Shown piece after piece: positions 2,327 through 17,152 of a stretch of 64,000 nucleotides of DNA. The stretch spans positions 1 to 64,000 of the forward strand of contig NZ_AUFC01000013.1 of the NCBI RefSeq assembly GCF_000426305.1. The letters are read 5' to 3'. This DNA is from Anaerovorax odorimutans DSM 5092 (lineage in GTDB: Bacteria > Bacillota > Clostridia > Peptostreptococcales > Anaerovoracaceae). Within the stretch, counting starts at the first letter, position 1; each line of letters begins with the position of its first letter. The position numbers were made by a program, and so were the translations under genes. Under the pieces are notes generated by a model. The model had not been told where the DNA came from, did no database searches, and was given only the letters and a program-made list of their open reading frames with translations.

Positions 2327-5300
2327 TTACTGGATTCTATCATTTTTATTATTTGTAAGATAGTATGGTAGCATATCTGTTACAAAATGCCCTGCTCCTT
2401 TTCCTGCAAACTTTGCCCAGCCTTTAATATCTGTGGCTTTCGAAGGTTTCGGTGCAGGGGTTACATAATTATAGGTTGCTTTATATTTAGAATCAGTTAT
2501 AGGTTTTAAAGTGTCTCCATCAAATACAGCCTCTCTACCATTAGGATTGATAAACTTTAATTCTGGTTTACCTTTCCCATTGTCATGATATACAGACATA
2601 TCTTGACTTAATAATATCCATCCTGAATTTCTTTTAGTTACTTCTTCATATGTCGGAGGGACGCCATTCAACTTATCCCTATTTTCAAAATGAAACTTTG
2701 TTGCTTTTATATATATACCATCTATAAAATTAGGGTGCTTATATTCCCAGACTTGTTTATTAGTATAAACATGTCCATCATTATCAACATATACATTATT
2801 TTCATCAATTTGTTTTTGAGCCCATTTATTTCCCTTAGAAGCTAAGTCTTTATAGTAATTATATTGATTCTGGCTCCATTTTGCATCAGCAATACTATGA
2901 CCACTAGGATCAGTATATAAGATTGGATTGTTTTTGCAATATGTATACAAATTCAAACTTAATGGATCTTCACTATTTCCCGTATAACTGTCTTCTGTAA
3001 TAAATCTCCCTATAACAGGATCATAATATCTAGCTCTTAGATAAACAGTTCCTGTTTCTGCATCAAAATACTCTCCGCTATACCTAAATGGGTTTGTATC
3101 ATTAGTATATATATTCTTTTCGTTTCCAAATGCATCATAGACATATTCTTTTGTTACATTTCCTGTGCTGTCAGTTAATTGTACCACATTTCCATGTCCA
3201 TTGAACAGATACCATCCGTTATTATCGCTATTTATTAATCCTATTCCTCTTATATAACGGTTAATTACTTCATCATTTTCATTCAATTCTAAGGTTATAT
3301 CCTGTCCTTCCCATACTTGGGTTGTTTTTTCGCCATTCACTGTCTTTGACAGTCTAAGTCCATCTGGTCTGTAAGTGTAAGAACTTCTGCCTTTACTATT
3401 TTGAACACCAGTCATTCGGTCAAAGCCATCGTAGCTGTACAGTTCTGCTCCTGTCATATCAAGAGAAATAGTAAGAGTTTCAGCGCCACTGATGGCACTT
3501 AAGGTTCCTGTGTTCTTTGCTATGGTATTTCCGTTATTGTCATAATAATAGTCCATAACTTCAGTTTTGTCACTTAATTGTTTTGTTTCTGTAGTCAGTC
3601 TATTATTCAAATCATACTGATAGCCTGTGGTATAATTCTCTGCTCCAGTCACTGTTATTGTAGCTCTATTTCCTGCTGCATCGAAGGTATAGGTCTTGGT
3701 AATGGCATCTGCTGTTCCGCTTTCTGATTCTTTAGTCAGCCTTCCAAGGCCATCATAAATATAACTGGTCTGTAGTCCATTATTATCAACTTTTGCTGCC
3801 TGATTTCCGTTTAAATAATATGTATAATCATAGCTTGAGATTGTTTCAGTTCCTTTTTTATTTTCAAGAGAAGTAACAAGGTTTGCCAAATTATATGCAT
3901 AATCTACACTGTTACCGTTTCCATAAATAAAGCGTCTTCTATTTCCATTTGCATCATAAATATACGTTGCTACTAAATTCCCGGCTTCATAAACTTCACT
4001 TAATCTGTCTTTTTTATCATATACATAAGACATTGTTTTCACTACTGCATCATTAACCTTTACAACCGAAGTCTTTACATTGCCGTTTGCATCATAAGTG
4101 TAATTCTTTTCTATTCCATTAGAATCTACCTCTGTGATGACTTTACCCTGTTCATCATAGGTATAACTTGTTTTCAGGTTTTCATTTTGGACATATGCTA
4201 TAGCTCCTGTTAAAGTGTATGCTTTTATTTCTTGCTGCTTAGTTCCCTCCTTGGTAATGCTTTGACTAAGATTTCTAGATAGTCCATCATAAGTATAGGC
4301 TGTAGTCAGACCATTCTTGTCGGTTTTGGAAATCATGTTGCCGTTGATATCATAGCTGTAGGTCTCTTTCTGCCCAAGTGGATCGGTTAATGTTTTTAAA
4401 TATCCAAAGCGGTCATATTCATAGGTTGTCCTTTGAGTACCGTTACCTGTTACCATGGTGGTCATATTTCCTGCAGTATCGTATTCATAATTTACTTCAT
4501 TTGCAACGTTACTACCATCATAACTTTTTACCTGTACCAGCTTGTTTTGATTGTTATATGTATATTCAATCTTTGTAAAGGCTGCATCTGCTCCTGGAAG
4601 GCTGTTTTCTATTTGTTTTTGAATTAGATTCCCATTTTTATCATAATAGTATTTTGTTACTGATGCTGCTCCTGCAGTAAATGGTGTTTCTTCTTTTATG
4701 AGTCTTCCAAGTGTATCATAGGTGTAAAGGGTACGATAGCTTCCTCCTGATGCATTGCTTTTAGCATCTGTTTGTGATATCTTTCTTCCTGCTGCATCAT
4801 AACCTGTGGTGATAAAATTTCCTAGGACATCATATTTTTTTATGACTTTTCCATCATGGGCATATTTATATTTCGTAGTAAAGTCCTCTGGATAACTTTC
4901 CTCATTAGCACGAGCAGAATTTTCTTTTATCACTTCTCCAAGGTAGTTATATACAAAAGTACTGAAAACTTCTTTTCCGTTATTACTTCTTCCTTGTTTT
5001 ATTAATCTGCCATACTTATCCATATATTCAGTAGTGACAATGGTCTTACTGTTTGCATCTCCTAAGATAGTCTTAATCACTTTATCATCATAATAGCTAT
5101 TGTTTTCCTGTGATAAAATCTGATTAGAGGCATTTACAGAGCTTTTTTTAAGAATACGATCAAGATAGTCGTAGCTATAAGTAGTTGCTCCTCCTCCTTC
5201 TGAAAGATTATTCTGGTATTTTATGAGCCTATACACCCTGTCATACTCGTTTGCTTTGAGTAAAGTAGCATTTCCTCCATCTATGCTGTAGACAGCAGTC

Positions 5301-8224
5301 AGGTTTCCTGCAGGATCATACTTATAACGAGTTGCGTATCCTCTTTCATCAGTTATAGTAGTTTCATTAGACACTGTATTATAATTATAAGTCTTTGTGC
5401 TATTATTTGGATACATAATTTTTATTACTCTTCCAAGGTCATCATAGGTATAGGTAGTCACATTTCCTTTGCCATCTGTTTCCGTTAGAATTCTTCCATA
5501 GATGTCATAGGTTGCTTGTCTTAAGATTCCCCCTAAATTGATTCCATCTGCATTTTTTACATTTTGCACTGCAATATTTGAGAGGTAGGTACCATTCATA
5601 TAGGTATGGTCTGTTTCAGTATATATCCCTGCTTGGAGGTCTGTATATTGTTTATTTTTTATTACGTTACCGTAAGTATCATAGCTAAGTTCGCTCTTTG
5701 CTTTTAAATTACCATTTTCATAAGTCAAAAACTGAGCAATACTTTTTTGATCTGCAGTCGGTACATACTTTTCATTAATTGTACTAGCCACATCTCTCTT
5801 ATAAGTCTTACCTGTTAAATAGTTATACTGATTATTATAAGTCATTGTTACCTTATACTCTGTATCAGAAGTGTTTCCTTCTGAAAGTGCCGGCCAATAG
5901 CTGATGACGTTCCCTTTATTGTCATAGTCATAGCAATCAATAGTCGTCAATGTTTGAACATTTGATGTATTATATCGGTTTGTTGTTACTTTGGATTTGG
6001 AAGGGTGAACAAACAAATTAAATGTATGATAATCAATAGTGTTTTTCTGGGTTAAACCGGAACCTACATAGATATCTTCTTCAACACAATTTCCTCTTCT
6101 ATAATCAAAAGTGTATTTTGTTGTAATATTTCTATTAAGATCTGTTTCTTTTACCCACCAATTCATCCAATCATCAAATGGGTTACTTTCTGAAAGTTCA
6201 TTGTGGTATCCATCAGCATTGTATAGGAAATTCGTTAATACACCATTTTTCTTATATCGATATGAATAATCATACTCTTTTTCATTATACAATGTTGTTC
6301 CCTGTTGATCATACCTCCTTTTTAGTGCAATATCCTCCATACTTCCATAGTCATACCAATTATTTCTTCTTTGATAATATTCATAGTTTACCATTAAACC
6401 TGTAGGATATATAATCTTTGTAAGCCCGGCATAATAGTTTGGATAATATGTATCTTCATCATCAAAAGGCTCCACACTTAGAAACTTATTACTACTAGTC
6501 AAGTGAAAGCGAGCAGCAAAATCTGAAGCACACTTTATATCAGAATAAGTATAAGATGTTGCTTCTCCTTCTTGGTTAATTGCTTTCATTAAGTTATATT
6601 CATTATGCTGTCCTGCAAAAGATTCATATTTATCAAAAGCATTTAAGGTTCTTGCAGTATTATGATTTAGTATATATGTGATTGTTTTTCCGTCAGGTAA
6701 CCTTAAAACCTTATTATATCCAGAGGCAGTCACTTCATTTTTTAGAGTTATAATTCTTCCAAGAGTATCAGTTATCTGCATCTCCAACATATTGTTAACA
6801 GTTGTATAGGTAAAAGAAATGGTATTCCCAAATCGATCTACAATTGCAATTAATCTGCCTGCAGAGTTAAAATATTCTTTTTTACCATCAGCATATGTAA
6901 CTGTATAAGATGAACTCTGTCCTGCTATTGTATTTGACTCTGTTGCAAAAATTACATCTTTATAAAGATAATACCCTAGATTATTTACCCAGTTTGAAGA
7001 TACTCCAAATTCTCTACCATCAGATAGATGTAATTTTATAAAGTCATAGTAGAATAAATCCGTATCTATATAAGAAAAATTAAATTTCCATCCTGCACCA
7101 AGCTGCCATAATTCTTCATTCCTTGTAATAGGATTTGATATCTGTTTAGCAAACATATTACTAGTAAGACTGGTGCTCATCGTATTTTTATATAAATGAG
7201 CAGAATAATAATCTCCTTTATCTTCTATTTGCTTCATATTATAAAGGCCTTTAAAGGCTCTTGACTCCATATAATCTTCACCTATGGCGTCATAGGAAGT
7301 AGCATCAATTTGTTCCCCCATTGTGTCATCTGCATTTTTTTCAAAATATTTTTCTCTTTCATATACATTCATATAAGAATATATTGGTTTCCCTCTAGAG
7401 CTTGTCCCATATGCCAGTTTGCCACTTATATCATAATAATTAGCCTGCTCAGTACTATATTGTCTTTGAATTACCAAATCTAATCCCCCAGCACCTGGTA
7501 ATATAACATCTGTTACAATATACTTCAATGTTCCTGAGCCTAAGTCAATCTGTTCATTTGCAGTATTATTATGATTAAATGGTGCTTCTAGTGTTTTCTC
7601 TTTATCATATTTAACATCTGAAAAAGGATCTTCATCTGTTGAAGATAGTCTTATAAGATTTTTTTGAGTTGAATTTAAGTGGCTTAATTGTTCTTGTTTT
7701 TTTGTAGATATTAACGCATCTCTTGTATCTTCTTGGATTGATTTTTCTATTTTTTCATCTGTCAATCCATATCCCAACATATTTGAATAAATAAGAATAG
7801 CTTTTTCTAAATTTTCACCTTTTTCTTCTGAATAATTAAAAAAGTTTTCGCTAATTCCAAAGAACTTACATAGTTTTAATTTGTTATCCTCTGTCAATTG
7901 GCTGTAAATTGAGCTTGACAGTGTGAGGATTTTTAGTATACCTATAGACTCAACAAGGAGTTCATCTTTTGTTCCTTGGTAATCTATCATAGTATAATAT
8001 AATTTACGAGCCAATTCTGTTGAAAGAGATGAGGTATCTAACTTATTAAATATCTTTTCTGCTACAAAATCCGGTAAACTATTATTTTCTGAACTTATAT
8101 TACTCTGTTTTTCTATATTCGTATTTATTTTATCTTCTTCTGCTGTACCTGTTTTGATTGTTCCTTTTGAGTTTTTATTATCTGGTTGTTCTTTTGTTCT
8201 TGTATCTTTTTTATTTTGTCCCAT
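2327..8224 (-). CDS. RHS/YD-repeat polymorphic toxin
   Basis: 1965 aa. Residues 1-60 are charged and low-complexity with no signal peptide. A domain of about 550 aa follows, then dozens of YD repeats (Y.YD..G....) up to the core-closing motif RARYYDPVIGRFITEDS and the cleavage-type boundary DPSGHS. In RHS proteins the core forms a shell enclosing the C-terminal toxin. The tip (about 1778-1965) starts with the pre-toxin segment shared with the orphan tip and ends with NGREAVFDGDTLKPITDSKY, TYNYV.P and HFVTDMLPYYL. From memory this pattern occurs in uncharacterised toxin tips of type VI effectors. The start ATG has a strong AAGGAGG site. The gene lies between a broken phage-like gene and a candidate immunity gene, probably in one operon. 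The target of the toxin is unknown. Confidence 0.9.
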   Translation of the reverse strand: MGQNKKDTRTKEQPDNKNSKGTIKTGTAEEDKINTNIEKQSNISSENNSLPDFVAEKIFNKLDTSSLSTELARKLYYTMIDYQGTKDELLVESIGILKILTLSSSIYSQLTEDNKLKLCKFFGISENFFNYSEEKGENLEKAILIYSNMLGYGLTDEKIEKSIQEDTRDALISTKKQEQLSHLNSTQKNLIRLSSTDEDPFSDVKYDKEKTLEAPFNHNNTANEQIDLGSGTLKYIVTDVILPGAGGLDLVIQRQYSTEQANYYDISGKLAYGTSSRGKPIYSYMNVYEREKYFEKNADDTMGEQIDATSYDAIGEDYMESRAFKGLYNMKQIEDKGDYYSAHLYKNTMSTSLTSNMFAKQISNPITRNEELWQLGAGWKFNFSYIDTDLFYYDFIKLHLSDGREFGVSSNWVNNLGYYLYKDVIFATESNTIAGQSSSYTVTYADGKKEYFNSAGRLIAIVDRFGNTISFTYTTVNNMLEMQITDTLGRIITLKNEVTASGYNKVLRLPDGKTITYILNHNTARTLNAFDKYESFAGQHNEYNLMKAINQEGEATSYTYSDIKCASDFAARFHLTSSNKFLSVEPFDDEDTYYPNYYAGLTKIIYPTGLMVNYEYYQRRNNWYDYGSMEDIALKRRYDQQGTTLYNEKEYDYSYRYKKNGVLTNFLYNADGYHNELSESNPFDDWMNWWVKETDLNRNITTKYTFDYRRGNCVEEDIYVGSGLTQKNTIDYHTFNLFVHPSKSKVTTNRYNTSNVQTLTTIDCYDYDNKGNVISYWPALSEGNTSDTEYKVTMTYNNQYNYLTGKTYKRDVASTINEKYVPTADQKSIAQFLTYENGNLKAKSELSYDTYGNVIKNKQYTDLQAGIYTETDHTYMNGTYLSNIAVQNVKNADGINLGGILRQATYDIYGRILTETDGKGNVTTYTYDDLGRVIKIMYPNNSTKTYNYNTVSNETTITDERGYATRYKYDPAGNLTAVYSIDGGNATLLKANEYDRVYRLIKYQNNLSEGGGATTYSYDYLDRILKKSSVNASNQILSQENNSYYDDKVIKTILGDANSKTIVTTEYMDKYGRLIKQGRSNNGKEVFSTFVYNYLGEVIKENSARANEESYPEDFTTKYKYAHDGKVIKKYDVLGNFITTGYDAAGRKISQTDAKSNASGGSYRTLYTYDTLGRLIKEETPFTAGAASVTKYYYDKNGNLIQKQIENSLPGADAAFTKIEYTYNNQNKLVQVKSYDGSNVANEVNYEYDTAGNMTTMVTGNGTQRTTYEYDRFGYLKTLTDPLGQKETYSYDINGNMISKTDKNGLTTAYTYDGLSRNLSQSITKEGTKQQEIKAYTLTGAIAYVQNENLKTSYTYDEQGKVITEVDSNGIEKNYTYDANGNVKTSVVKVNDAVVKTMSYVYDKKDRLSEVYEAGNLVATYIYDANGNRRRFIYGNGNSVDYAYNLANLVTSLENKKGTETISSYDYTYYLNGNQAAKVDNNGLQTSYIYDGLGRLTKESESGTADAITKTYTFDAAGNRATITVTGAENYTTGYQYDLNNRLTTETKQLSDKTEVMDYYYDNNGNTIAKNTGTLSAISGAETLTISLDMTGAELYSYDGFDRMTGVQNSKGRSSYTYRPDGLRLSKTVNGEKTTQVWEGQDITLELNENDEVINRYIRGIGLINSDNNGWYLFNGHGNVVQLTDSTGNVTKEYVYDAFGNEKNIYTNDTNPFRYSGEYFDAETGTVYLRARYYDPVIGRFITEDSYTGNSEDPLSLNLYTYCKNNPILYTDPSGHSIADAKWSQNQYNYYKDLASKGNKWAQKQIDENNVYVDNDGHVYTNKQVWEYKHPNFIDGIYIKATKFHFENRDKLNGVPPTYEEVTKRNSGWILLSQDMSVYHDNGKGKPELKFINPNGREAVFDGDTLKPITDSKYKATYNYVTPAPKPSKATDIKGWAKFAGKGAGHFVTDMLPYYLTNNKNDRIQ
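2897..2971. repeat. 75-bp direct repeat, copy 2 (first copy 760-834)
   Basis: Identical to 760-834 and located at the core/tip border of the full-length RHS gene. Recombination between the two copies would remove the present tip, the immunity candidate and the scar, and attach the orphan tip to the core. Confidence 0.85.
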
Positions 8225-8360: not shown

Positions 8361-8675
8361 TTAAAAATAATAATCTGTTTTCAATAAATCTTTAGGGCAT
8401 ATGGCATTAAAAAGAATATAGCCTGTATAGAAATTATTACTATTATCTGAATAGAAATTAGAAAATATAGATAAAATTGAATTTGTTTCTACAAAGAAAT
8501 TTTCTGCTATTTTATAAGGATAAATATATGTATATAATGTATCTTCTGGTTATATATTAATATTATTAACAAGAAAGTCAGATTCGTTATTGATTAATGC
8601 TTTAAGTAATAACTCATCTCCAATAAGCTTTGATGTAATAATATTTTTATAATCAGTAATTGTTTTACCAGCCAT
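8361..8675 (-). pseudogene. Broken small phage-like protein gene upstream of the RHS gene
   Basis: An ATG at 8675 behind an AGGAGGTG site starts MAGKTITDYKNIITSKLIGD and ELLLKAL, stopped by an in-frame TAA at codon 42 (8550-8552). The same frame then stays open for 62 more codons (YPYKIAENFFVETNSIL, then YTGYILFNAICPKDLL) to 8361. The layout (K..LTSKL..DE.LLKAL then IYPY....) reminds me of short proteins in clostridial phage structural clusters. The single nonsense codon suggests recent inactivation or an error. It lies 136 bp upstream of the RHS gene on the same strand. Confidence 0.55.
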
Positions 8676-9107
8676 TAAATACACCTCCTATATTTCATAG
8701 TTCTAAATAAAGAATATTTTCTCAAGTATATTCTTGTTGAATACGTAGTTTATATAATATAATAATTTGCAGTAAAATTTTGTGGATAAATATTCTAACT
8801 AGTCTAATTATAATAATCACCTCCTTTATGTATAAATTTTTTAATATAATCTAAATGTAATACTCCCTAATTAATATTTATATAATTTAAATTTATATAT
8901 TATATTAATGTTTCATTGGGAGATAATCTATGAACTTAGAACTATGATCCTTTCATATTAGAAAAATTGTTAATATGATTACAAACATTTAATTTTCAAT
9001 ATTTCCATAAATTTTTGAAGTTTGGATAATATCAAATATAAAATAAATGTAAAGTAAAAGATTTATTTTAAGATACATTTAGAGCGATTTTCCCTTTTAA
9101 ATTAAAA
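8676..9107. other. A/T-rich gap with no gene seen
   Basis: No open frame with a ribosome site, no hairpin and no clear promoter pair is visible. The minus-strand promoter of the RHS operon probably lies at its left end. Confidence 0.4.
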
Positions 9108-9130
9108 ACCAGCAACTTTAATGTGCTGGT
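9108..9130 (-). terminator. Terminator of the polymerase/zinc-ribbon operon
   Basis: On the minus strand ACCAGCA pairs with TGCTGGT across a 9-base loop, followed by TTTTTAATTT. It lies about 95 bp past the stop of the zinc-ribbon gene. Confidence 0.65.
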
Positions 9131-9224
9131 AATACATATTTATATCTTTCATATTAGATAGTTTGCTAATATATTAGTAAATATTTAAAATTCAATAACT
9201 ATATATTTTTTTAAAACTTGGAAG

Positions 9225-9980
9225 TTATTTATTTCTATTTCTTTTTTTACTATTCCTCCATAATTCTTTTTCTCTTTCTTTCCAGCAACTATTGCAATAT
9301 TGTTTTCTATTACTTGTTATTTTGAATCTATTTCCACATTTAATGCAATAACCAATTTTCTCGCCCTTCCACTTTAAATATTCATATACAAAATTTCTAA
9401 AGTCACTTAATATTATTACATTTTTGCTATTTTCATTTATGAAATTTACACAAATATTTGTATTATCAACTTTTTTTGCCGGACTAATTAAATTTGTTTG
9501 AAACAATTTATGTAAGGCCAATCTTTGATCTACAATTTTTAAAGTTAATTTTGCGTCACTAAATATATCTTTATCTTTACTGTTAGTCCAATTATTATTT
9601 TCGTTATTTATTTGATTAAATATTTTAGCATAAACTAATAATACAAATAATATCTTTTCTTGTTTAAGATTATTTAAATTACTAATAGTTACTAATTCAA
9701 TTTGAGTAATTTTTATGTTATTAATTACTAATAATTTATAACTATCATTTGCATATTTATTTATTAATTTATTAATAATATTATCCCATGTAATATTATT
9801 AAAAGATATATAATTTTTAGACATGAAGCTTTCAATTTCTATTTTTATATTTTTTTTATTGTAGCCTAAACTATAGTAATATTTGATTAATGCTTTAATA
9901 GTTATAGTGGGTTTTTTATGTATTATATTATATTTTAAAGCATTATTTACTATATCGTTTTCATTAATTATTATATTCAT
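9225..9980 (-). CDS. Zinc-ribbon protein coupled to the predicted RNA polymerase
   Basis: About 251 aa. I prefer the ATG at 9980 because GAGGAAA sits seven bases before it; an in-frame ATG at 9992 lacks a site. Most of the protein is helical, Asn/Lys/Ile-rich and unrecognised. The C-terminus is a four-cysteine ribbon, C-x2-C (CIKCGNRF) and C-x2-C (YCNSCWKE), followed by a basic tail. Such ribbons bind nucleic acid or dock on polymerases. Its start overlaps the end of the 920-aa polymerase-like gene by 17 bp, so the two are translated together and probably work together. It could be an accessory transcription factor; this is inference from the ribbon and the overlap. Confidence 0.6.
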   Translation of the reverse strand: MNIIINENDIVNNALKYNIIHKKPTITIKALIKYYYSLGYNKKNIKIEIESFMSKNYISFNNITWDNIINKLINKYANDSYKLLVINNIKITQIELVTISNLNNLKQEKILFVLLVYAKIFNQINNENNNWTNSKDKDIFSDAKLTLKIVDQRLALHKLFQTNLISPAKKVDNTNICVNFINENSKNVIILSDFRNFVYEYLKWKGEKIGYCIKCGNRFKITSNRKQYCNSCWKEREKELWRNSKKRNRNK

Positions 9981-12726
9981 AAATTTCCTCATAACTTGTA
10001 ATATATTTCTTTTTCATTATAAAACGCATTCCGCAAAATAATATATCTCCATTTTTATCTAAAGAAGGATAATTATAAGTATTATTATTTTTATTTAATA
10101 AATTTTCTATTATAATATTGCCAACAATATCCCACGCAAATTGTTTTGAATTATTGTTTTGATAACAAATATCAAGAATTATATCGCATAATTCAAATTT
10201 ATTATTACAGATTTCAAAAGATTTTTGCTTAAATGTATTTTTAAATAAACTCCTTTTAATTCTTTTCTCACTTTTATCAAGTCTATCTTTTTTAGCTAAT
10301 TTAGAAAATTGTTGCAGATTATATTTGTATTCTTCATATAGTTCATAAATTTTATTATATTTACTTTTTGAATATTTCACGTGTGATTTTAATAAATTAT
10401 AATCAAAGTTATTTATTTTGATTTTAGATTTTATACAGTCATCAAAGTAATATTCAATTTTCCAACATATTTTATTCATAATAGAATTGTTTATAAATAC
10501 AGGCATTAGCGTATAGTAGTAATCAAGAAAAGTTATTTCTTCATCCGATTTATTATCTTTTTCTATAAGATTATTTATGCTTAAACCAAATCTGCCTAAG
10601 GAATTTCTATTGGTTTGTTTAATGTAATTTTTATAGTTCTTCATTAGATCTGGATATATATAAATAAAAAAGTAAGGCTTTTTATCAGCAAGAATATTTA
10701 AATTAAATTCCTTTTCTTTTATTGTGTTTAATGTATCCTTTTCTAAAATTTTATTTGGTTTAAAATCATACCATTCTTTTGGCATGTCTTTACATATGAT
10801 TCCTTTGGTTTTATCTATTGAGTTTTGTTGATAATTTTGTCCGCAGGATATTCTATAAATTAATTCTTTATATTCTTTAGTATCTTTATTAAACTTTGAT
10901 AAAACATCAAACATAGAGGTGATTTTATTTGTAATAGTCCCAATTTCATTACCAAAATTATTTTTATTTGATTTAATTAGATCTTCCTCCTTAACAATAA
11001 TTTTTTCTGCTGATTTCTGCATACATACAATTGCAGGCATTTGAGTAATACCTTTCAATATTATAGGATTATTTGTTGTTAATATTGTATCTCCATCTTT
11101 ATCTAACCCATTTAAAGCGTATGCAGTTGCGTCCCAAGAATTAAAAATTGTTACAGTATTCATATATCTATACCAATATTCTGTATCAGTATTTTTTTTA
11201 AAATCAAGTATCCTGATATTATTGTGACATGTCATTGGAGCTCTAAAACAAGCTACTTTATTAACATTAAGTTTGTTCCAATAATTTGAATAAAATTCGC
11301 CTGATTTTAATAAACCTGTTACTTTTAAGTTAAATATACTTTGGCATAAACTGTAGGGATCTCCGGATACAGTTGAAAAGTTTCCATTAATTTTTAAAAC
11401 ACCTATTTTGGCATCGTTTATACGTTTTTTTATCATTTTATGTATGCTATTTTTAACAAATGGATCTTCAATAATTTTTTTATCAATCATTAATGCTTTT
11501 ATAAAATTATAATCTCCAATATCAACATTATTTTCATTAATATGATGTCCCCTTAGAAATAATATGCTTTTTCTGTAATCACCATATAAAACATCTTTAA
11601 TTTCATCAACTGTTGGTTTAATTAATTGCTCAATATCATTATCATTTAAATTTAGGGATTGAATAAACTGATAGTTTAAATTTCTTTCGTTTTCTAATTT
11701 TTCGGGCATTACTTTTGTTATACTGAAATTATATTTGTTTTTTTCACAATTACTTATGTAATGACTTAAATTTTCGTAGGAATCCCATAGTTTTAACATT
11801 GATGTTGTAAGAATTATATCTATTTCATTTATATTATATTTGTTTCCCCAGACATCAACTGCAATAATTTTTTTTGCAATTTTTCTGGCAAATTCTTTAA
11901 AATCAAAAGTAAATAGCATACCTTTACAAAAACTGTTTCTAATGCAATATCCAGAAGGTTCATATTTAAGACCCAAATATGAACTCCATTTTTTGCTAAA
12001 ATCAGGAGATATTAAGCCATATCCATCACTATCATTTAATTTAAGCTTTGCATTTTTTTCTAATTGCATAATAGGATATGTACCTTTGCCATCATCTATT
12101 TTAATAATATCTTCTGTAAAATCAGTGATACAATCATTAACTACTAATATATTTTTTGTATTTATCATTGGTATACTAGCACTACAAATTAAAGCTTGAT
12201 AAGCTTCTAATTTTCCAGGTATTAATTTTTTATTTAAGTTTCTACCGTTATCTATTCTTTCTTTAAGTTTATTATATATCTCTACTAATACATAGATTAT
12301 AGTTTTACTTTTAACACCTCCGGTAGATGCTAGTAGTCTTTGGAATTTTAATCCGTTTATAAAAAAACCTTTATTTGCTCTATCAAAGTCACTATTTTTA
12401 TCAATTATTATATTTACTATATCAGGAATGAATAAAATTTCATCTAGTTGCGAATATAACTTTTTTATATTATTAATATTATTCATATTTGTATCCAATA
12501 TTTTAATCTGCTTAATTTTATTTTTTATATTTTCAACTTTTTCTTCAGAAAAATTATAATTTTTAATATTATAAATAAATCTAATTAATTCATTATCTGA
12601 AATTGTTATTAATTCATCATTTTTTCTTGCTTCACTAAGTGTAATTTTTAAGTCCCAATTAGCATTTCTTAATCTAGATGAGTGTATTTTATAAACAAAT
12701 TTTAAACTTGTACTTTGTTTTATCAA
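9964..12726 (-). CDS. Predicted single-chain RNA polymerase (YonO/QDE-1-like two-barrel fold)
   Basis: 920 aa from a TTG at 12726 behind AAAGGGG. Key segment: GVLKINGNFSTVSGDPYSL (from about residue 442), then FRAPMTCHNNIRIL (R495), then GLDKDGDTILTTNNP with the triad D542-x-D544-G-D546. A D-x-D-G-D loop carrying the catalytic metal, preceded at 40-60 residues by an R-x-P strand and a Lys/Gly/Asn-rich barrel strand, is the signature of double-psi-barrel RNA polymerases (NADFDGD in RNAP beta-prime, DLDGD in eukaryotic RdRPs). The length is close to the 905 aa I recall for SPbeta YonO, a single-subunit DNA-dependent RNA polymerase that transcribes late prophage genes. It has no sigma-like or primase motifs. 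It is transcribed from a divergent promoter (12886-12914) and coupled to a zinc-ribbon gene. Fold assignment is inference; template and product are unknown. Confidence 0.65.
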   Translation of the reverse strand: MIKQSTSLKFVYKIHSSRLRNANWDLKITLSEARKNDELITISDNELIRFIYNIKNYNFSEEKVENIKNKIKQIKILDTNMNNINNIKKLYSQLDEILFIPDIVNIIIDKNSDFDRANKGFFINGLKFQRLLASTGGVKSKTIIYVLVEIYNKLKERIDNGRNLNKKLIPGKLEAYQALICSASIPMINTKNILVVNDCITDFTEDIIKIDDGKGTYPIMQLEKNAKLKLNDSDGYGLISPDFSKKWSSYLGLKYEPSGYCIRNSFCKGMLFTFDFKEFARKIAKKIIAVDVWGNKYNINEIDIILTTSMLKLWDSYENLSHYISNCEKNKYNFSITKVMPEKLENERNLNYQFIQSLNLNDNDIEQLIKPTVDEIKDVLYGDYRKSILFLRGHHINENNVDIGDYNFIKALMIDKKIIEDPFVKNSIHKMIKKRINDAKIGVLKINGNFSTVSGDPYSLCQSIFNLKVTGLLKSGEFYSNYWNKLNVNKVACFRAPMTCHNNIRILDFKKNTDTEYWYRYMNTVTIFNSWDATAYALNGLDKDGDTILTTNNPIILKGITQMPAIVCMQKSAEKIIVKEEDLIKSNKNNFGNEIGTITNKITSMFDVLSKFNKDTKEYKELIYRISCGQNYQQNSIDKTKGIICKDMPKEWYDFKPNKILEKDTLNTIKEKEFNLNILADKKPYFFIYIYPDLMKNYKNYIKQTNRNSLGRFGLSINNLIEKDNKSDEEITFLDYYYTLMPVFINNSIMNKICWKIEYYFDDCIKSKIKINNFDYNLLKSHVKYSKSKYNKIYELYEEYKYNLQQFSKLAKKDRLDKSEKRIKRSLFKNTFKQKSFEICNNKFELCDIILDICYQNNNSKQFAWDIVGNIIIENLLNKNNNTYNYPSLDKNGDILFCGMRFIMKKKYITSYEEIYEYNN

Positions 12727-12885
12727 TTTACTAGCAACCCCTTTATTATTTTTTATCTTGGATATTCTAAATATTTATTATATTGCTTTATTTTATATTG
12801 TTTTTAGATTCTTCCAATAATAGTGATTAAAATAATATTTTCATATTGTTTTAAACTTCAATAATGATATCAAAATATTATAAAC

Positions 12886-12914
12886 AATGTACCATAATAA
12901 AAAATATATGTCAA
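12886..12914 (-). promoter_or_regulatory. Sigma-A-type promoter for the polymerase operon
   Basis: Minus strand: -35 TTGACA (12914-12909), 17-bp spacer, -10 TACATT (12891-12886), about 160 bp before the gene start. A 15-base A-rich element (12928-12942) sits 13 bp upstream of the -35. Confidence 0.6.
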
Positions 12915-12927
12915 TTTATATAAATAT

Positions 12928-12942
12928 TTTTTATTTCTATTT
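12928..12942 (-). repeat. A-rich 15-base element, copy 1
   Basis: AAATAGAAATAAAAA on the minus strand, 13 bp upstream of a -35 box. The exact word recurs at 13879-13893 (plus), 3 bp upstream of another -35. The spacing difference is one helical turn. The word also occurs at 61390-61404 in the prophage, so composition bias must be considered. Confidence 0.45.
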
Positions 12943-13173
12943 ATTAAAATTGCGAAATAATAATGATTTAATAATTTTTTATTATTATTTTTCTAATTAT
13001 TTGATTTAAAACACATGATTTTTATAAATTAAAAGACTATTTAAGGCTACTTAACTTATCAATTAAAATATTAGTAACTAATATTTTGAAAAAGATATAA
13101 TAGTGACTTAAATAAAACTAATAATAACAAACAAAATATAATGATATTGATAATAATCGTTATTATTTTATAT

Positions 13174-13192
13174 AATAAAAATAAAAAATAAT
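13174..13192 (+). repeat. A-rich 19-base element, identical at 17181-17199
   Basis: AATAAAAATAAAAAATAAT, ten bases upstream of a TTGACA box. An identical 19-mer is at 17181-17199 and an 18/19 match at 13820-13838. It resembles the 15-base element (12928, 13879) with one G-to-A change. Confidence 0.45.
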
Positions 13193-13202
13193 AGTAATAA
13201 AT

Positions 13203-13231
13203 TTGACATGTAAAATTTTTCGTGTTAATAT
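13203..13231 (+). promoter_or_regulatory. Consensus promoter for the rightward island genes
   Basis: TTGACA (13203-13208), 17-bp spacer, TAATAT (13226-13231), giving a leader of about 155 bp before the ATG at 13396. It is divergent from the promoter at 12886-12914 and shares the A-rich upstream element, so both may answer to one regulator. Confidence 0.65.
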
Positions 13232-13395
13232 AAATTAAAATAAAAAATAAATTTTAATTTATATTTTATATCTATATCTTTTAATAAAATTTTAAAATTT
13301 ATTATTTTATTCGTCAATATATTAAGCTTTGACATAATTTTGTATTTTTCGACATAATTTTCATTTTTTTAATTATAATAATAAAGGAGATAAAT

Positions 13396-13803
13396 ATGTA
13401 TAAAAAAAATAGTACTAATAATATTGATTTTTCAATTAATAATCTTACTAATGAAAGTGATTTTAAAAAATTGCAATTAAAAATAGAAACAGAAGAAGAA
13501 TTACATAAATTACGTGATTATATAAATATAATGAAAGGTTTTTATGCTCCTAATTTAATTTTAAAGACTTTTATTAAATATAAGGATAATATTAATAAAA
13601 TTATAATGTTAGAATACAAATTAAGAGATTTAAATATAACTTCTTTAATAGATAGATTACATATAAGTACATTAAATGAACTGTTGAAAACTATAAATTC
13701 TGAGCAAGATTTAAAGCTATTTTATGAAATTTGGAATGAAAATAAAAACAAATATCATATGATTTATATAATACATTTATTTAAAGAAAGAAAGGCAACA
13801 TAG
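13396..13803 (+). CDS. Unknown small protein, first gene of the rightward island
   Basis: 135 aa, predicted all-helical, rich in Lys, Asn, Ile and Leu, with no motif I recognise. ATG with AAAGGAG at a good distance. It is separated by 149 bp, including its own promoter, from the next gene, so it is a separate transcription unit. Extreme A/T codon use matches the whole island. A regulator or antirepressor role would fit the position but cannot be shown. Confidence 0.65.
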   Translation: MYKKNSTNNIDFSINNLTNESDFKKLQLKIETEEELHKLRDYINIMKGFYAPNLILKTFIKYKDNINKIIMLEYKLRDLNITSLIDRLHISTLNELLKTINSEQDLKLFYEIWNENKNKYHMIYIIHLFKERKAT

Positions 13804-13952: not shown

Positions 13953-15284
13953 ATGTTAAAGGAGAGGTTCGAATTAGAGAAAAATCTTGATAGTATCATT
14001 ACAACATATAACGCAAATAAAAAAGTAGCCGATGCTGTTAAAAAAAATATGAATAAACATAATATTTTAACTGGAGAATTTCAAGAAATTTGGTTCAAAA
14101 ATACTCCGCTGGATACAATAGATGAAGTTACTTTGTATTTATTAACTAAATATTTATACGAAAAGACAAATGAACCTTCAATAAAAAAAGAAGATTATTT
14201 TACGGAAGTAGAAATAGATGATGGAAATAAATATAAAAAACAGATTATAGATAATACAATATCATATCCTATTATATTTAATAACGTTTTGAAAGGTAAA
14301 GATGATCAATATATTTTATATCTACCAATACAAAAAATTAAACAACTACAAGATAGCAGTATAATAACTTATAATTTTGAAACGCAAAGATCTCCTAAAC
14401 ATAAATTAAGCAAAGATGGAGATTTAATAAAAGTAGCAAACGTAAATAAACAATCAGTTTCAGAGATTGCTGATTTTTTTTTGGAAGGAAGATTTATTCC
14501 CAATACAATTACTTTAAATTTATTACAAGATGGAAATGACGAATTTGGATATAATGATAAAACAAATGAATTAGTTATAGCCTCGGGACAAATAAATATA
14601 ATAGATGGTTTTCATAGGTGTTTAGGTATAATAAAAGCTTTGGGAGAAAATCCAGATTTAGACTATATTATGGAGGTTCGTTTTACTAATTGGGATGTAC
14701 AAAAATGCAGGAACTTTATTCATCAGGAAAATATTAGAAATAAGATAAACTCAAAATATATACAATCAATTATAAATATTAATAAATGGGGGAATAAAGT
14801 CGTAAATAAAATTAATGATGGACAAGGTGATTTAAAAGGTAAGATTACTACTGATTTTACTTTGATTAGAATGAATAAAGCTTTTACAATGTTTGATATG
14901 ATGTCAAATACTATTGATATGTTATGGGAAATTAAAACTAATATGGAAGTAAACAATTTAGCTAATTATTTAACTAATTTTTTTGATTATGTAATAGGTT
15001 ATAAGGTTGAAGATTTTATTGATGATTTAAAGGGTTCTAAAAGTCAAAGTGTTGTTACTATGCCTGCAATGTTTGTAGGATATTTATGTGTAGCAAAAAA
15101 GTTACAACATGAGGAAGATTGGGAAAAAAGGTTAATTGATTTTTTAGATAATACTAACTTTGATATTAATAATCCAGAATGGGTGAAAATAGGTATTATA
15201 AATAAAAAATTAAATCCAACAATAAGTTTGACTAAATCAAATTTAAAAAATATTATTAGTTATTTCAATGAAATTATATATTGA
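13953..15284 (+). CDS. DGQHR/ParB-like fold protein (YopQ-like position)
   Basis: 443 aa. The recognisable core at about residues 206-265 reads NELVIASGQINIIDGFHRCL then GIIKALG, a variant of the I-D-G-Q-H-R box of DGQHR/DndB and ParB/sulfiredoxin-like proteins (Gln replaced by Phe). NFIHQENIRNKI follows, like the Q..N......L segment after such boxes. These proteins bind nucleotides or DNA ends; the role here is unknown. It lies 13 bp upstream of the dead-recombinase gene. In phage SPbeta a protein of similar size (YopQ, about 460 aa from memory) directly precedes YopR, so the pair may be homologous to yopQ-yopR. Own promoter with A-rich element upstream. Confidence 0.6.
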   Translation: MLKERFELEKNLDSIITTYNANKKVADAVKKNMNKHNILTGEFQEIWFKNTPLDTIDEVTLYLLTKYLYEKTNEPSIKKEDYFTEVEIDDGNKYKKQIIDNTISYPIIFNNVLKGKDDQYILYLPIQKIKQLQDSSIITYNFETQRSPKHKLSKDGDLIKVANVNKQSVSEIADFFLEGRFIPNTITLNLLQDGNDEFGYNDKTNELVIASGQINIIDGFHRCLGIIKALGENPDLDYIMEVRFTNWDVQKCRNFIHQENIRNKINSKYIQSIININKWGNKVVNKINDGQGDLKGKITTDFTLIRMNKAFTMFDMMSNTIDMLWEIKTNMEVNNLANYLTNFFDYVIGYKVEDFIDDLKGSKSQSVVTMPAMFVGYLCVAKKLQHEEDWEKRLIDFLDNTNFDINNPEWVKIGIINKKLNPTISLTKSNLKNIISYFNEIIY

Positions 15285-15297
15285 AAGGATATAACCT

Positions 15298-16293
15298 ATG
15301 TATAATGAATCATTAAAAAATAGATTTCTAAATATCTATTCCGATGATACAGCGAAAATCTATAAATATAGTTTGTTACAAATTAGTGAATCCGAAGAAT
15401 TTTATAAAAAAGATATATTTGATTTTAATTATGATCAATTAGATAATGCTTTTAAATCAATAAGATCAAAAACAATGTCTGGTGTTAGACGTAATGTTAG
15501 TCCTATTTTAGAATATATAAGATGGGCAAATAAAAATGGATTTGTTAAATCTAAAATTGATATAACTAATTTGTTTATGGGAGATAAATTAAAAGATTAT
15601 GTTTGGAAACATGCACATATTAATAGTTATATTTATAGAGAAGAAATGTATGTAATATGTGAGCAGCTAATAAATCCTATTGATAGAGCCATAATAGTTC
15701 TAGCTTTTGAGGGTATAGATGGTAAAGGTCATTTTGAAATGATTAATTTAAAATATAGTGATATAGATTTTCAGACAGGTAAAGTTCATGTTGCTAATGA
15801 AAAAGGAGATATAAGAGAGATAGTTATAACTTATAAAAAAAGTTTAGATATTTTAAAAGAAGCACAAAAACAAAATACATATTTGATAGGAAATGGTGAA
15901 GCAAATAGAAGTAAGAGAACAGAATTTGAATTAACTGACACACCTTACATTATAAGAAAAATAAATAGACCTAATACATCAAAGAATAATGAACTAGTAA
16001 GTTCAGGTTTTATTGCATCTAAAGCTACTAAATTTTTTAAAGGAAAAAGAGATGTTGTTACTGGTGAGTTTGTTGAAATACCATTTGTTGGAGATTGTGA
16101 ATTTTTAAATTTGCAAAATATATTTAAAAGTGGATATTTTGATTATTGTATGAATTTGGAGAATGAAAAGGGAGAGTTAAAGACTCAGGATTATAAAGAT
16201 ATATGTATTAGATTTGGTATAAATCCTAATAATATTCAAAGCTACAAAGCACAATATTTAGATTGGAAAAAAATATTAAGTGAGCGTGATTAA
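15298..16293 (+). CDS. Tyrosine-recombinase-fold protein lacking catalytic residues (MrpR/YopR-like)
   Basis: 331 aa. Residues 1-100 look like the SAM-like core-binding domain of phage integrases. Residues about 120-160 (LINPIDRAIIVLAFEGIDGK then HFEMINLKYSDIDF) match the start of the integrase catalytic domain, where active enzymes have T-G-L-R. Here the Arg is missing (DGKG), and no H-x-x-R box or C-terminal nucleophile Tyr follows. It should therefore bind DNA without cutting. SPbeta YopR (MrpR, 325 aa from memory) is a repressor of exactly this build that holds the prophage silent. ATG with GAAAGGA, 13 bp after the DGQHR-like gene. Likely the master repressor of the island, binding the A-rich elements; this is inference. 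Confidence 0.65.
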   Translation: MYNESLKNRFLNIYSDDTAKIYKYSLLQISESEEFYKKDIFDFNYDQLDNAFKSIRSKTMSGVRRNVSPILEYIRWANKNGFVKSKIDITNLFMGDKLKDYVWKHAHINSYIYREEMYVICEQLINPIDRAIIVLAFEGIDGKGHFEMINLKYSDIDFQTGKVHVANEKGDIREIVITYKKSLDILKEAQKQNTYLIGNGEANRSKRTEFELTDTPYIIRKINRPNTSKNNELVSSGFIASKATKFFKGKRDVVTGEFVEIPFVGDCEFLNLQNIFKSGYFDYCMNLENEKGELKTQDYKDICIRFGINPNNIQSYKAQYLDWKKILSERD

Positions 16294-16294
16294 T

Positions 16295-16726
16295 ATGATA
16301 GAGTATTTAAATATTAACGATCTAATTATTAACATGAATAGAAATAAAGATTTTTTATGCAATTACTTATATGAAGTTAATAAAATTGGATATACAAAAA
16401 ATGAAACTCTTTATATTAAATTACAAATTGAAATAATAGATGAAATTATAAAACAATTATCCTATAAGAGTCTATGTGATCTACTGATTAAATCTTCTAA
16501 TCGTCGATTAAAAAAAATAATTTCTGGAGAAGAATATTTAGCAAATATTTTAGAGTGCCCAGAAGATTATAATTTAGTAATTGATCTAGAAAATTTAAAT
16601 AATGTAGATGTAAGAAGAGCTTTAATTTTTATTGATTTAAGACAAAAATATTGTTATTTTCAACATAAAAATTTATGCAATATAGGATTAAATTATATTA
16701 ATGGGAAATGGCAATTGTTAAAATAG
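16295..16726 (+). CDS. Unknown protein in the repressor operon
   Basis: About 143 aa from the ATG at 16295, which directly follows the stop at 16293. An in-frame GTG at 16280 would overlap the upstream gene and has no clear site. Helical N-terminal part, then a short segment (CPEDYNLVIDLENLNNVDVR then RALIFIDLRQKYCYF) with no match I know. Spacing shows co-transcription with the MrpR-like gene and the XRE gene. Confidence 0.6.
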   Translation: MIEYLNINDLIINMNRNKDFLCNYLYEVNKIGYTKNETLYIKLQIEIIDEIIKQLSYKSLCDLLIKSSNRRLKKIISGEEYLANILECPEDYNLVIDLENLNNVDVRRALIFIDLRQKYCYFQHKNLCNIGLNYINGKWQLLK

Positions 16727-16735
16727 AGGTAAAAT

Positions 16736-17152
16736 ATGAATTTTGGAGAAAAAATCAAGTATTTAATGGTAAAAAATAATGTAAAATATGTTAATGAATT
16801 TGCTGAAAATGTAGGTCTTAGTCCAGACACAATTAACAAATACATGAAGAAAGATACTTTGGAAGGTATTGAAGCAGTTAAGGTTAAGAGAATTGCTGAT
16901 TACTTTGGTGTATCTATAGACTATTTTTTTAATATAATAGAAGATAAATATGATTTGGAAATTGCTAAATATGACTATTTTAAAGAAGATGAAATTAATA
17001 AAATTATAATTGAGGATTTTATTAAAGAAATAAAAAGCGTGTTAAATAATGCAGATATTTTTTTGTCAGATGGTAAAATTATTAATAGTGAAAGAAAGTA
17101 TATTATTGATAGTATTGATATTGGACTTAAAATTATGAAGCAGAATATATAG
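16736..17152 (+). CDS. XRE-family transcriptional regulator
   Basis: 138 aa. N-terminal helix-turn-helix (residues about 4-65: EKIKYLMVKNNV, FAENVGLSPDTINKYMK, IADYFGVSIDYFF) typical of Cro/CI proteins. The C-terminal half is acidic and helical, perhaps for dimerisation. It follows the preceding gene by 9 bp with an AGAGGT site and is the last gene before a gap with another A-rich element. Likely one of two DNA-binding proteins controlling the island. Confidence 0.8.
   Translation: MNFGEKIKYLMVKNNVKYVNEFAENVGLSPDTINKYMKKDTLEGIEAVKVKRIADYFGVSIDYFFNIIEDKYDLEIAKYDYFKEDEINKIIIEDFIKEIKSVLNNADIFLSDGKIINSERKYIIDSIDIGLKIMKQNI

What the first reader, a model, noticed from the sequence alone, without database searches (positions are those of the whole stretch)
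9225..12726. A single-chain YonO/QDE-1-like RNA polymerase with an overlapping zinc-ribbon partner
Seen: GLDKDGDTI (D542, D544, D546) preceded by FRAPMTCHNNIR and a GVLKINGNFSTVSGDPY strand in a 920-aa protein, with a four-cysteine ribbon protein overlapping by 17 bp. Known: a D-x-D-G-D metal loop downstream of an R-x-P strand is the core of double-psi-barrel RNA polymerases, and SPbeta YonO is a single-subunit member of about this length. Inference: this is an uncharacterised one-chain RNA polymerase with a dedicated small ribbon subunit, away from any visible virion genes. It could be a transcription system for the island, or a polymerase making RNA for another purpose such as defence.
Basis: partly seen in the sequence, partly recalled or inferred. 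Interest (0 to 1): 0.9.

Follow-up and report, generated by a model that had tools for sequence, protein, structure and literature searches.

The report
Two-chain YonO-type phage RNA polymerase module
This stretch of a bacterial chromosome is a leftover of an SPbeta-like virus that still carries an intact virus-type RNA polymerase gene and an overlapping partner gene, and comparison with relatives suggests the partner is a real part of the enzyme, probably helping it find where to start.

Summary
On the minus strand, 9964-12726 encodes a 920-aa protein with the quoted motifs; 9225-9992 encodes an overlapping four-cysteine partner (17 bp overlap if it starts at Met5).

The 920-aa protein is a YonO-family RNA polymerase. 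It matches SPbeta YonO by sequence, and its confident model matches plant RDR2 and fungal QDE-1 best. The Asp triad is invariant in 72 of 72 aligned relatives.

The new part is the partner. Of 166 loci, 97 have a separate partner, 31 (SPbeta YonO among them) carry the same ribbon fused to the polymerase C-terminus, and none was seen with both. Three other polymerases carry the partner's winged-helix region fused instead. These fusions suggest that the partner works on the polymerase; promoter recognition or initiation is my best guess. No paper I found describes it.

Here the module sits beside yopQ- and mrpR-like genes and a broken virion gene. The portal found in 13 of 13 kin phage records was not found in this genome. 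So it is most likely a prophage remnant of a late-gene transcription module, not a defence system.

The parts
9964..12726 (-). YonO-family RNA polymerase, 920 aa, TTG start, intact frame
11089..11103 (-). catalytic metal loop D542-K-D544-G-D546; the three Asp are invariant in 72 of 72 aligned relatives
   Evidence: pLDDT 95 for residues 541-550
9225..9992 (-). partner protein, 255 aa from the first ATG (251 aa from the likelier Met5 at 9980): helical domain, predicted winged helix, C-terminal zinc ribbon
9408..9704 (-). predicted winged-helix region of the partner (residues about 97-195); the region fused to the polymerase in L105, L107 and L167
9285..9347 (-). four-cysteine ribbon of the partner (C216, C219, C233, C236), invariant in 68 of 68 aligned partners; a ribbon of the same kind is fused to the C-terminus of YonO
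12727..13395 (.). very AT-rich divergent intergenic region between the polymerase operon and the lysogeny genes; no promoter shown
13396..13803 (+). 135-aa protein, no significant family match
13953..15284 (+). yopQ-like protein (DndB family, phrog_5732), 28.5% to SPbeta YopQ over 77% of its length
15298..16293 (+). MrpR/YopR-like protein (SPbeta master repressor family; recombinase fold; integrase activity not expected, untested)
16280..16726 (+). 148-aa protein, no significant family match
16736..17152 (+). HTH phage-type regulator, 138 aa
8370..9200 (-). decayed phage late-gene fragment, 89.4% identical to a region of another contig (C13) where the virion gene is intact

Best explanation
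The pair is the late-transcription module of an SPbeta/YonO-type phage, kept in a prophage remnant. The large protein is a DNA-dependent RNA polymerase of the YonO family (homology shown; activity inferred from YonO). The small overlapping protein is a dedicated subunit or factor of that polymerase: that it belongs to the polymerase is supported by gene fusions; that it acts in promoter recognition and initiation, using its winged helix and ribbon on DNA, is inferred. In an intact phage the host polymerase would transcribe the pair after induction, and the pair would then transcribe the virion and lysis genes downstream (inferred). In this genome those genes are broken or were not found, while the pair and the yopQ-mrpR-HTH genes remain.
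For: Polymerase: tblastn to SPbeta YonO E=8e-19, to BUCT082 3e-130, to PMBT24 E printed as 0. The profile finds 7 PDB sequences of plant RDRs and QDE-1 at 1e-5 to 1.5e-3. Model pLDDT 92.6; all 24 Foldseek PDB matches at E<=0.001 are RDR2/QDE-1 chains (21) or the phage polymerases P32 gp64/P74 gp62 (3). YonO itself transcribes SPbeta late genes (PMC5467207, passages). Partner: 97 of 166 loci have it (96, L071 added), 31 have the ribbon fused, 0 both; the fused rows are one clade, 27 of 128 rows, support 100. Partner profile against fused C-termini: 97%, 1.1e-10, ribbon only; against split C-termini nothing. Winged helix fused in L105/L107/L167: 90%, 1.7e-6, score 45.9 against at most 24.5 in 30 shuffles and 13.5 reversed. 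Context: in PMBT24 the pair heads the virion-lysis block. Remnant: portal in 13 of 13 kin records, none found in this genome.
Against: No biochemistry exists for the two-chain form that I know of. CxxC...CxxC ribbons are common and occur in elongation and cleavage factors too (recalled). SPbeta YonO works in vitro without the partner's winged helix, so that domain is not needed for catalysis. No shared late-promoter motif was found. The partner has no PDB fold match at E<=0.001 (best 0.085), so 'winged helix' rests on predicted secondary structure and weak matches. 27 of 166 loci have no partner by profile, among them 20 of a third clade whose neighbour could not be linked to it, and L127 with none seen. 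The window starts at a contig end, so part of the phage could be unassembled.
Confidence: 0.7

Rival explanations
1. The partner is an elongation, processivity or RNA-cleavage factor (RPA12/TFIIS-like use of the ribbon) and does not choose promoters.
For: YonO keeps only the ribbon and is highly processive (PMC5467207, abstract passage); the partner profile weakly touches the RPA12 and subunit P ribbons (E about 0.5).
Against: Those hits are not significant, and ribosomal and other ribbons score alike; a 250-residue protein with a predicted DNA-binding region is more than such a factor needs; another lineage kept the winged helix and no ribbon was seen there.
Confidence: 0.2
2. The partner is an unrelated DNA-binding or replication protein that is merely co-transcribed with the polymerase.
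For: Its weak structural neighbours include replication initiators.
Against: Two different regions of it are fused to the polymerase in two lineages, it is next to the polymerase in 97 of 166 loci, and it was not seen together with a fused ribbon.
Confidence: 0.08
3. It is an RNA-templated polymerase (as the database name 'RNA-dependent RNA polymerase' says) used for RNA silencing or defence.
For: Closest solved folds are eukaryotic RDR2 and QDE-1; several phage records carry that name.
Against: YonO, the characterised relative, is DNA-dependent and drives late genes; the pair or YonO stands ahead of late genes in phages; PADLOC gives nothing for the pair (0 of 2 proteins), and its matches for two neighbours are DndB on the yopQ-like protein, a phage family here, and weak mad1/TniQ on the HTH protein.
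Confidence: 0.04
4. The prophage is complete and alive but split over contigs or missing from the assembly.
For: The window starts at a contig end; contig C13 begins with phage late, tail-fibre-like, holin and endolysin genes.
Against: SPbeta-type portal and terminase were not found in a 98.5% complete assembly, though the portal family detects 13 of 13 kin records; the terminase alignment search had no positive control. The late fragment next to the pair is broken, and an RHS gene and spoIVA flank the island.
Confidence: 0.12
5. The remnant is domesticated: the host or a satellite keeps the polymerase plus repressor to interfere with, or hijack, related phages.
For: 920 codons open in DNA of about 20-25% GC with all 18 invariant residues kept, while the neighbouring virion gene is broken.
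Against: Recent decay explains the same facts; I did not search systematically for islands of this kind without a phage; among 98 related genomes only one had a match, a distant one, so there is no sign of long keeping.
Confidence: 0.1

Closest known systems
SPbeta YonO (single-peptide DNA-dependent RNA polymerase)
   Same: Polymerase core 24.7% identical over residues 115-607; same invariant residues in a five-row alignment; ribbon of the same kind; SPbeta also has yopQ and mrpR, in the same order
   Different: YonO carries the ribbon on its own C-terminus and no separate partner was seen; the window form has the ribbon on a second protein with a helical domain and a predicted winged helix; the window lacks the late genes
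RNA polymerase and next gene of Enterocloster phage PMBT24 and Bacillus phage BUCT082
   Same: Overlapping two-gene pair (39.5% and 32.9% to the polymerase) followed by an HU/histone-like gene and, further on, terminase and portal
   Different: Complete phages; PMBT24 is called virulent in its paper's title. The passages of that paper seen do not mention the pair
QDE-1 and plant RDR2 (eukaryotic RNA-dependent RNA polymerases)
   Same: Best fold matches over most of the length (E 2.5e-18 to 5.2e-14)
   Different: 10-14% identity; RNA silencing in eukaryotes and no overlapping ribbon partner (recalled)
Phage polymerases P32 gp64 and P74 gp62
   Same: Fold match E 2.3e-6 to 1.2e-5; phage-encoded
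   Different: Shorter chains (591-595 residues in the library), distant
MrpR (YopR), SPbeta master repressor
   Same: Window 15298-16293 matches YopR-type proteins over 88-94% at 23-28% identity
   Different: Whether the window protein binds an SPBRE-like element is unknown

Membership tests
YonO-like RNA polymerases | sequence homology to SPbeta YonO | tested here: met
   tblastn E=8e-19 over residues 115-607; joint alignments
YonO-like RNA polymerases | DxDxD metal loop and conserved basic residues | tested here: met
   D542, D544, D546, K268, K312, R495, K641 invariant in 72 of 72; that these basic residues are the functional ones is recalled/inferred
YonO-like RNA polymerases | both barrels in one chain with the two-barrel polymerase fold | tested here: met
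   One 920-aa chain whose model matches QDE-1/RDR2 over 770-1028 alignment columns in the top 21 hits; the barrels themselves were not traced
YonO-like RNA polymerases | DNA-dependent RNA synthesis of late genes | not testable with these tools
   Known for YonO (PMC5467207, passages)
single-peptide YonO form | ribbon on the polymerase chain, no separate partner | tested here: not met
   The ribbon lies on the separate overlapping partner
complete SPbeta-like prophage | portal and terminase of the SPbeta type | tested here: not met
   Not found; the portal control rings in 13 of 13 kin records; the assembly may be incomplete
complete SPbeta-like prophage | lysogeny genes mrpR and yopQ | tested here: met
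   core-gene status from a passage of PMC10516654
eukaryotic-type RNA-dependent RNA polymerase | fold | tested here: met
   the fold alone does not decide the template
eukaryotic-type RNA-dependent RNA polymerase | use of an RNA template | not testable with these tools
   No assay possible; neighbours are phage lysogeny and late genes, and no silencing genes were recognised in the families scanned
sigma/TFB-like initiation factor (partner) | physical association with the polymerase | tested here: inconclusive
   Gene fusions of the ribbon and of the winged-helix region to the polymerase; no binding data
sigma/TFB-like initiation factor (partner) | promoter-specific DNA binding | not testable with these tools
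   Winged helix predicted; no motif found

The most novel reading that the evidence does not exclude
YonO-type polymerases are at root two-component enzymes: a minimal two-barrel core plus a dedicated initiation factor (helical domain, winged helix, zinc ribbon) that arose independently of sigma and TFB. SPbeta YonO is a reduced form that kept only the ribbon, another lineage kept only the winged helix, and this may be the simplest core-plus-factor RNA polymerase known.
Probability: 0.4. Interest if true: 0.8.

Novelty: new variant of a known kind. Interest (0 to 1): 0.6.

Why it matters
How YonO recognises promoters, and whether it needs other host or phage factors, was left open by the paper that characterised it (PMC5467207, passage). 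A conserved partner whose regions are fused to the polymerase in two lineages is a concrete candidate. It is present in phages with known hosts (BUCT082 of Bacillus subtilis, PMBT24 of Enterocloster bolteae), so the question can be tested directly. It would also give a minimal model of how a two-barrel polymerase gained a specificity factor. The copy in the window itself is probably only a remnant.

Tried and rejected
Late-promoter motif: intergenic regions after the partner in 80 loci (58 non-redundant) gave only A-rich words, and the intergenic regions of the PMBT24 late block showed no repeated motif by eye. The promoter scan of the divergent region found 25 sites against 18.9 expected (sd 4.1), so it says little. 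Broken late fragment: its first 41-aa piece found nothing in phages by tblastn and only a weak PHROG match (0.034; the second piece none); the intact copy on C13 settled it. Partner fold: 0 PDB matches at E<=0.001; the 7 BFVD matches at that level are phage proteins with names I take to be automatic. Third clade of polymerases (Ruminococcus flavefaciens type): its adjacent about 280-aa protein compares with the partner profile at 5% probability, score 25.6 against at most 18.8 in 30 shuffles: inconclusive. Inserts in the polymerase gene: in 10 kin loci Rfam found no intron in them at gathering score. Contig C27: an ordinary siphophage by my reading of its ORFs (not compared with families), so not taken as the missing part. 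A cysteine pattern first labelled 25 of 128 rows as partner without ribbon; L008, L060 and L083 do have a ribbon with wider spacing, and L056 was a wrongly chosen ORF.

Selections and limits: the loci were found with the window family as bait, the viral scan kept 80 of 322 and the genome scan 80 of 168, so the shares of split and fused forms are not natural frequencies; near-copies are among them. All 31 fused loci come from the genome scan (30) and SPBc2 (1); 76 of the 96 partner loci come from the viral scan. One fused locus (L118) has only 205 bases downstream, so a partner there cannot be excluded. A4 is the window plus 71 of the 124 complete polymerases listed. A5 is the window plus 67 of 97 partner candidates: left out were 18 of the third clade, L109, L117, and 10 others (L056 and L060 among them). 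The partner profile was built from A5, so its hits to those 68 are by construction. Of the 166 loci, 8 polymerases run off the contig, 3 have too little sequence downstream, and 27 have no partner by profile: 20 of the third clade, 4 with the L109-type ribbonless partner (L003, L108, L109, L117; L003 and L109 read alike), L105 and L107 with the fused winged helix, and L127. The split control used 60 of 70 rows; the tree is a FastTree with long branches, built after cutting 55 residues from the fused rows.
Full report
What is there. On the minus strand, 9964-12726 encodes 920 aa and 9225-9992 encodes 255 aa. The quoted motifs are present. The overlap is 29 bp from the first ATG and 17 bp from the likelier Met5 start, which has a Shine-Dalgarno-like GAGGAAA. 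The polymerase belongs to PHROG families of unknown function (phrog_25339, 3.4e-191; phrog_8308, 1.4e-95; phrog_35857, 6.9e-84) and the partner to phrog_30716 (5e-35); Pfam has no match above its cut-offs for either.

The polymerase. Thirty-seven phage records encode a relative. The best are six Enterocloster phages (39.0-39.5%) and Bacillus phage BUCT082 (32.9% over 98%); SPbeta yonO matches at 24.7% over residues 115-607 (E 8e-19). In an alignment of 72 relatives 18 columns are invariant, among them D542, D544, D546, R495, P497, D456, D638 and K641. A profile of that alignment finds 7 PDB sequences of RDR-type polymerases and QDE-1 at E<=0.0015; its three further hits are weak and unrelated. 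The AlphaFold2 model has pLDDT 92.6 and pTM 0.88, with 95 for residues 541-550. All 24 Foldseek PDB matches with E<=0.001 are RDR2/QDE-1 chains (21) or the phage polymerases P32 gp64 and P74 gp62 (3). YonO is a processive DNA-dependent polymerase that drives the SPbeta late genes (PMC5467207, passages). That the window protein does the same is inference from homology.

The partner. I collected 80 viral and 80 genome loci with related polymerases plus six others, 166 in all. The downstream ORF was first picked by position only. In 82 of the 96 loci scored with a partner its first possible start overlaps or abuts the polymerase gene, in 32 of them by exactly 4 bases. Aligning 68 of these partners leaves the four cysteines and F116 invariant. 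Its model is very confident (pLDDT 95.5): a helical domain, then helices and strands in the order of a winged helix, then the ribbon and a long C-terminal helix. No PDB fold matches it at E<=0.001.

Fusions. Polymerases of the YonO type carry a ribbon of the same kind on their own C-terminus. Of 166 loci, 97 have a separate partner (96; L071, whose partner profile hit of 3.7e-88 fell outside the distance limit, added by hand), 31 a fused ribbon, and none both; for one fused locus, L118, the sequence ends too soon to tell. On a tree of 128 polymerases the fused rows form one clade, support 100. The partner profile hits YonO residues 771-837 (E 3.7e-7). A profile of fused C-termini matches the partner at 97% and 1.1e-10, with the convincing part in the ribbon, while split C-termini give nothing. 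Three polymerases of 1075-1104 aa (L105, L107, L167) carry instead the winged-helix part of the partner: 90%, 1.7e-6, score 45.9, against at most 24.5 in 30 shuffles and 13.5 reversed. The L109-type partner is homologous (96%, 1.4e-9) but reads without a ribbon. Such fusions are the usual sign of two proteins that work together. Which step the partner serves is not shown; a DNA-binding-like region plus a ribbon suggests initiation. Against a universal rule: 20 loci of a third clade have an overlapping neighbour that I could not link to the partner, and L127 has none that I saw.

Where it sits in phages. In PMBT24 the pair are the first two genes of a rightward block with histone-like, terminase, portal, capsid, tail, holin and lysin genes, opposite to the replication genes. 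Upstream of the pair lies TTGACA, 17 bases, TATAAT, 35 bases before the start codon, as for host polymerase. BUCT082, SPbeta and TR-TP1 show a like order: polymerase, then (not in SPbeta) a second gene, then an HU-like or DNA-binding gene and further on terminase (the second gene of TR-TP1 was not compared). In Perkons the polymerase is followed by HU; later genes were out of view and its ribbon was not checked.

Where it sits here. The island is AT-rich: GC 0.16-0.26 from 8 to 18 kb, against 0.28-0.39 in most of the flanks, with 0.24-0.28 again at 23-26 kb. It lies between an RHS gene and spoIVA. Divergent to the pair are a yopQ-like and an mrpR-like gene in SPbeta order and a regulator. mrpR and yopQ are named as core SPbeta-like genes likely active in lysogeny (PMC10516654, passage). 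Paenibacillus locus L140 shows the same divergent layout with a fused-type polymerase. Window 8370-9200 is 89.4% identical to C13:2524-3383, where an intact 165-aa virion-type protein (phrog_6123, 1.4e-9) precedes fibre-like, holin and endolysin genes. That family occurs in 8 of 13 YonO-type phage records, two of them weakly (E about 0.003). In the window its reading frame is broken. The SPbeta-type portal rings in 13 of 13 such records but not in this genome (where the B. subtilis control rings); the terminase searches are also empty (with a B. subtilis control, without). So a remnant is the likeliest reading. PADLOC gives nothing for the pair; the yopQ-like protein matches DndB at 1.3e-5 and the HTH protein weakly mad1 and TniQ.

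Literature. Searches for YonO (40 of 218 listed), YonO-like, YonO with RNA polymerase and phage since 2018, and barrel plus ribbon terms listed no paper on a partner protein by title or abstract start, and the passages seen of PMC5467207, PMC8270828, PMC7824862, PMC7481178 and PMC11035940 mention none. No paper was read whole. The library lacks most subscription papers and preprints, so this is no proof of absence.

Verdict. The polymerase is a new member of a known family; the two-chain form with its factor-like partner is a new variant. Confidence, my estimates: YonO family 0.95, partner belongs to the polymerase about 0.85, initiation role about 0.65, remnant about 0.85.

Noticed in passing
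L002, L065, L066, L069, L071, L074, L090, L096, L104: In nine kin loci examined (of 12 with a split polymerase ORF) the gene is interrupted; in eight the break falls at one of two invariant motifs (P0001 residues about 542-545 or 637-642), and in six of the nine the gap holds an ORF that looks GIY-YIG- or HNH-like by eye, as expected of homing introns. L065/L066 and L069/L071 are near-copies. Rfam called no intron there.
   Followed up: partly
window 8950-9026 and 9146-9222: Two 77-nt imperfect direct repeats (73%) with a CATATTA...TAATAT core just downstream of the partner; the only other places of the core pattern found in the genome are on C13 at 2552-2577 and 2754-2779, so they are part of the duplicated late fragment. 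Possibly regulatory.
   Followed up: partly
own genome C13:1-10100 (L178): Late region of a YonO-type phage with an intact virion-type gene, a 1145-aa fibre-like protein with repeated SHAEG motifs, holin and endolysin, followed by a recombinase fragment.
   Followed up: partly
own genome C27 (L189, L190): A prophage that looks like an ordinary siphophage; the terminase match there was flagged with two TGA inside the aligned stretch, although an open 438-aa ORF lies at 15767-17083.
   Followed up: no
L002 13896-17149: What looks like a phage terminase gene is interrupted by a group I intron, a TnpB-like ORF (by eye) and a RAGATH-18 RNA, i.e. an IStron-like element (element name recalled).
   Followed up: no
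L115-L164 (third clade): Twenty loci with polymerases of mostly about 1000 aa from Ruminococcus flavefaciens and kin; in 18 of them an overlapping or adjacent about 280-aa neighbour was aligned (A6); it has no simple ribbon and its relation to the partner is unresolved.
   Followed up: partly
L074 7164-7767: A full-length ROOL RNA lies about 1.4 kb downstream of the partner gene (partner at 4927-5724).
   Followed up: no
L102: A contig titled as a Woesearchaeota archaeon MAG carries a polymerase and partner pair closest to the BUCT082 kind; misbinning or an unusual host.
   Followed up: no
window 2327-8224: A 1965-aa RHS-repeat protein left of the island, near the contig end.
   Followed up: no
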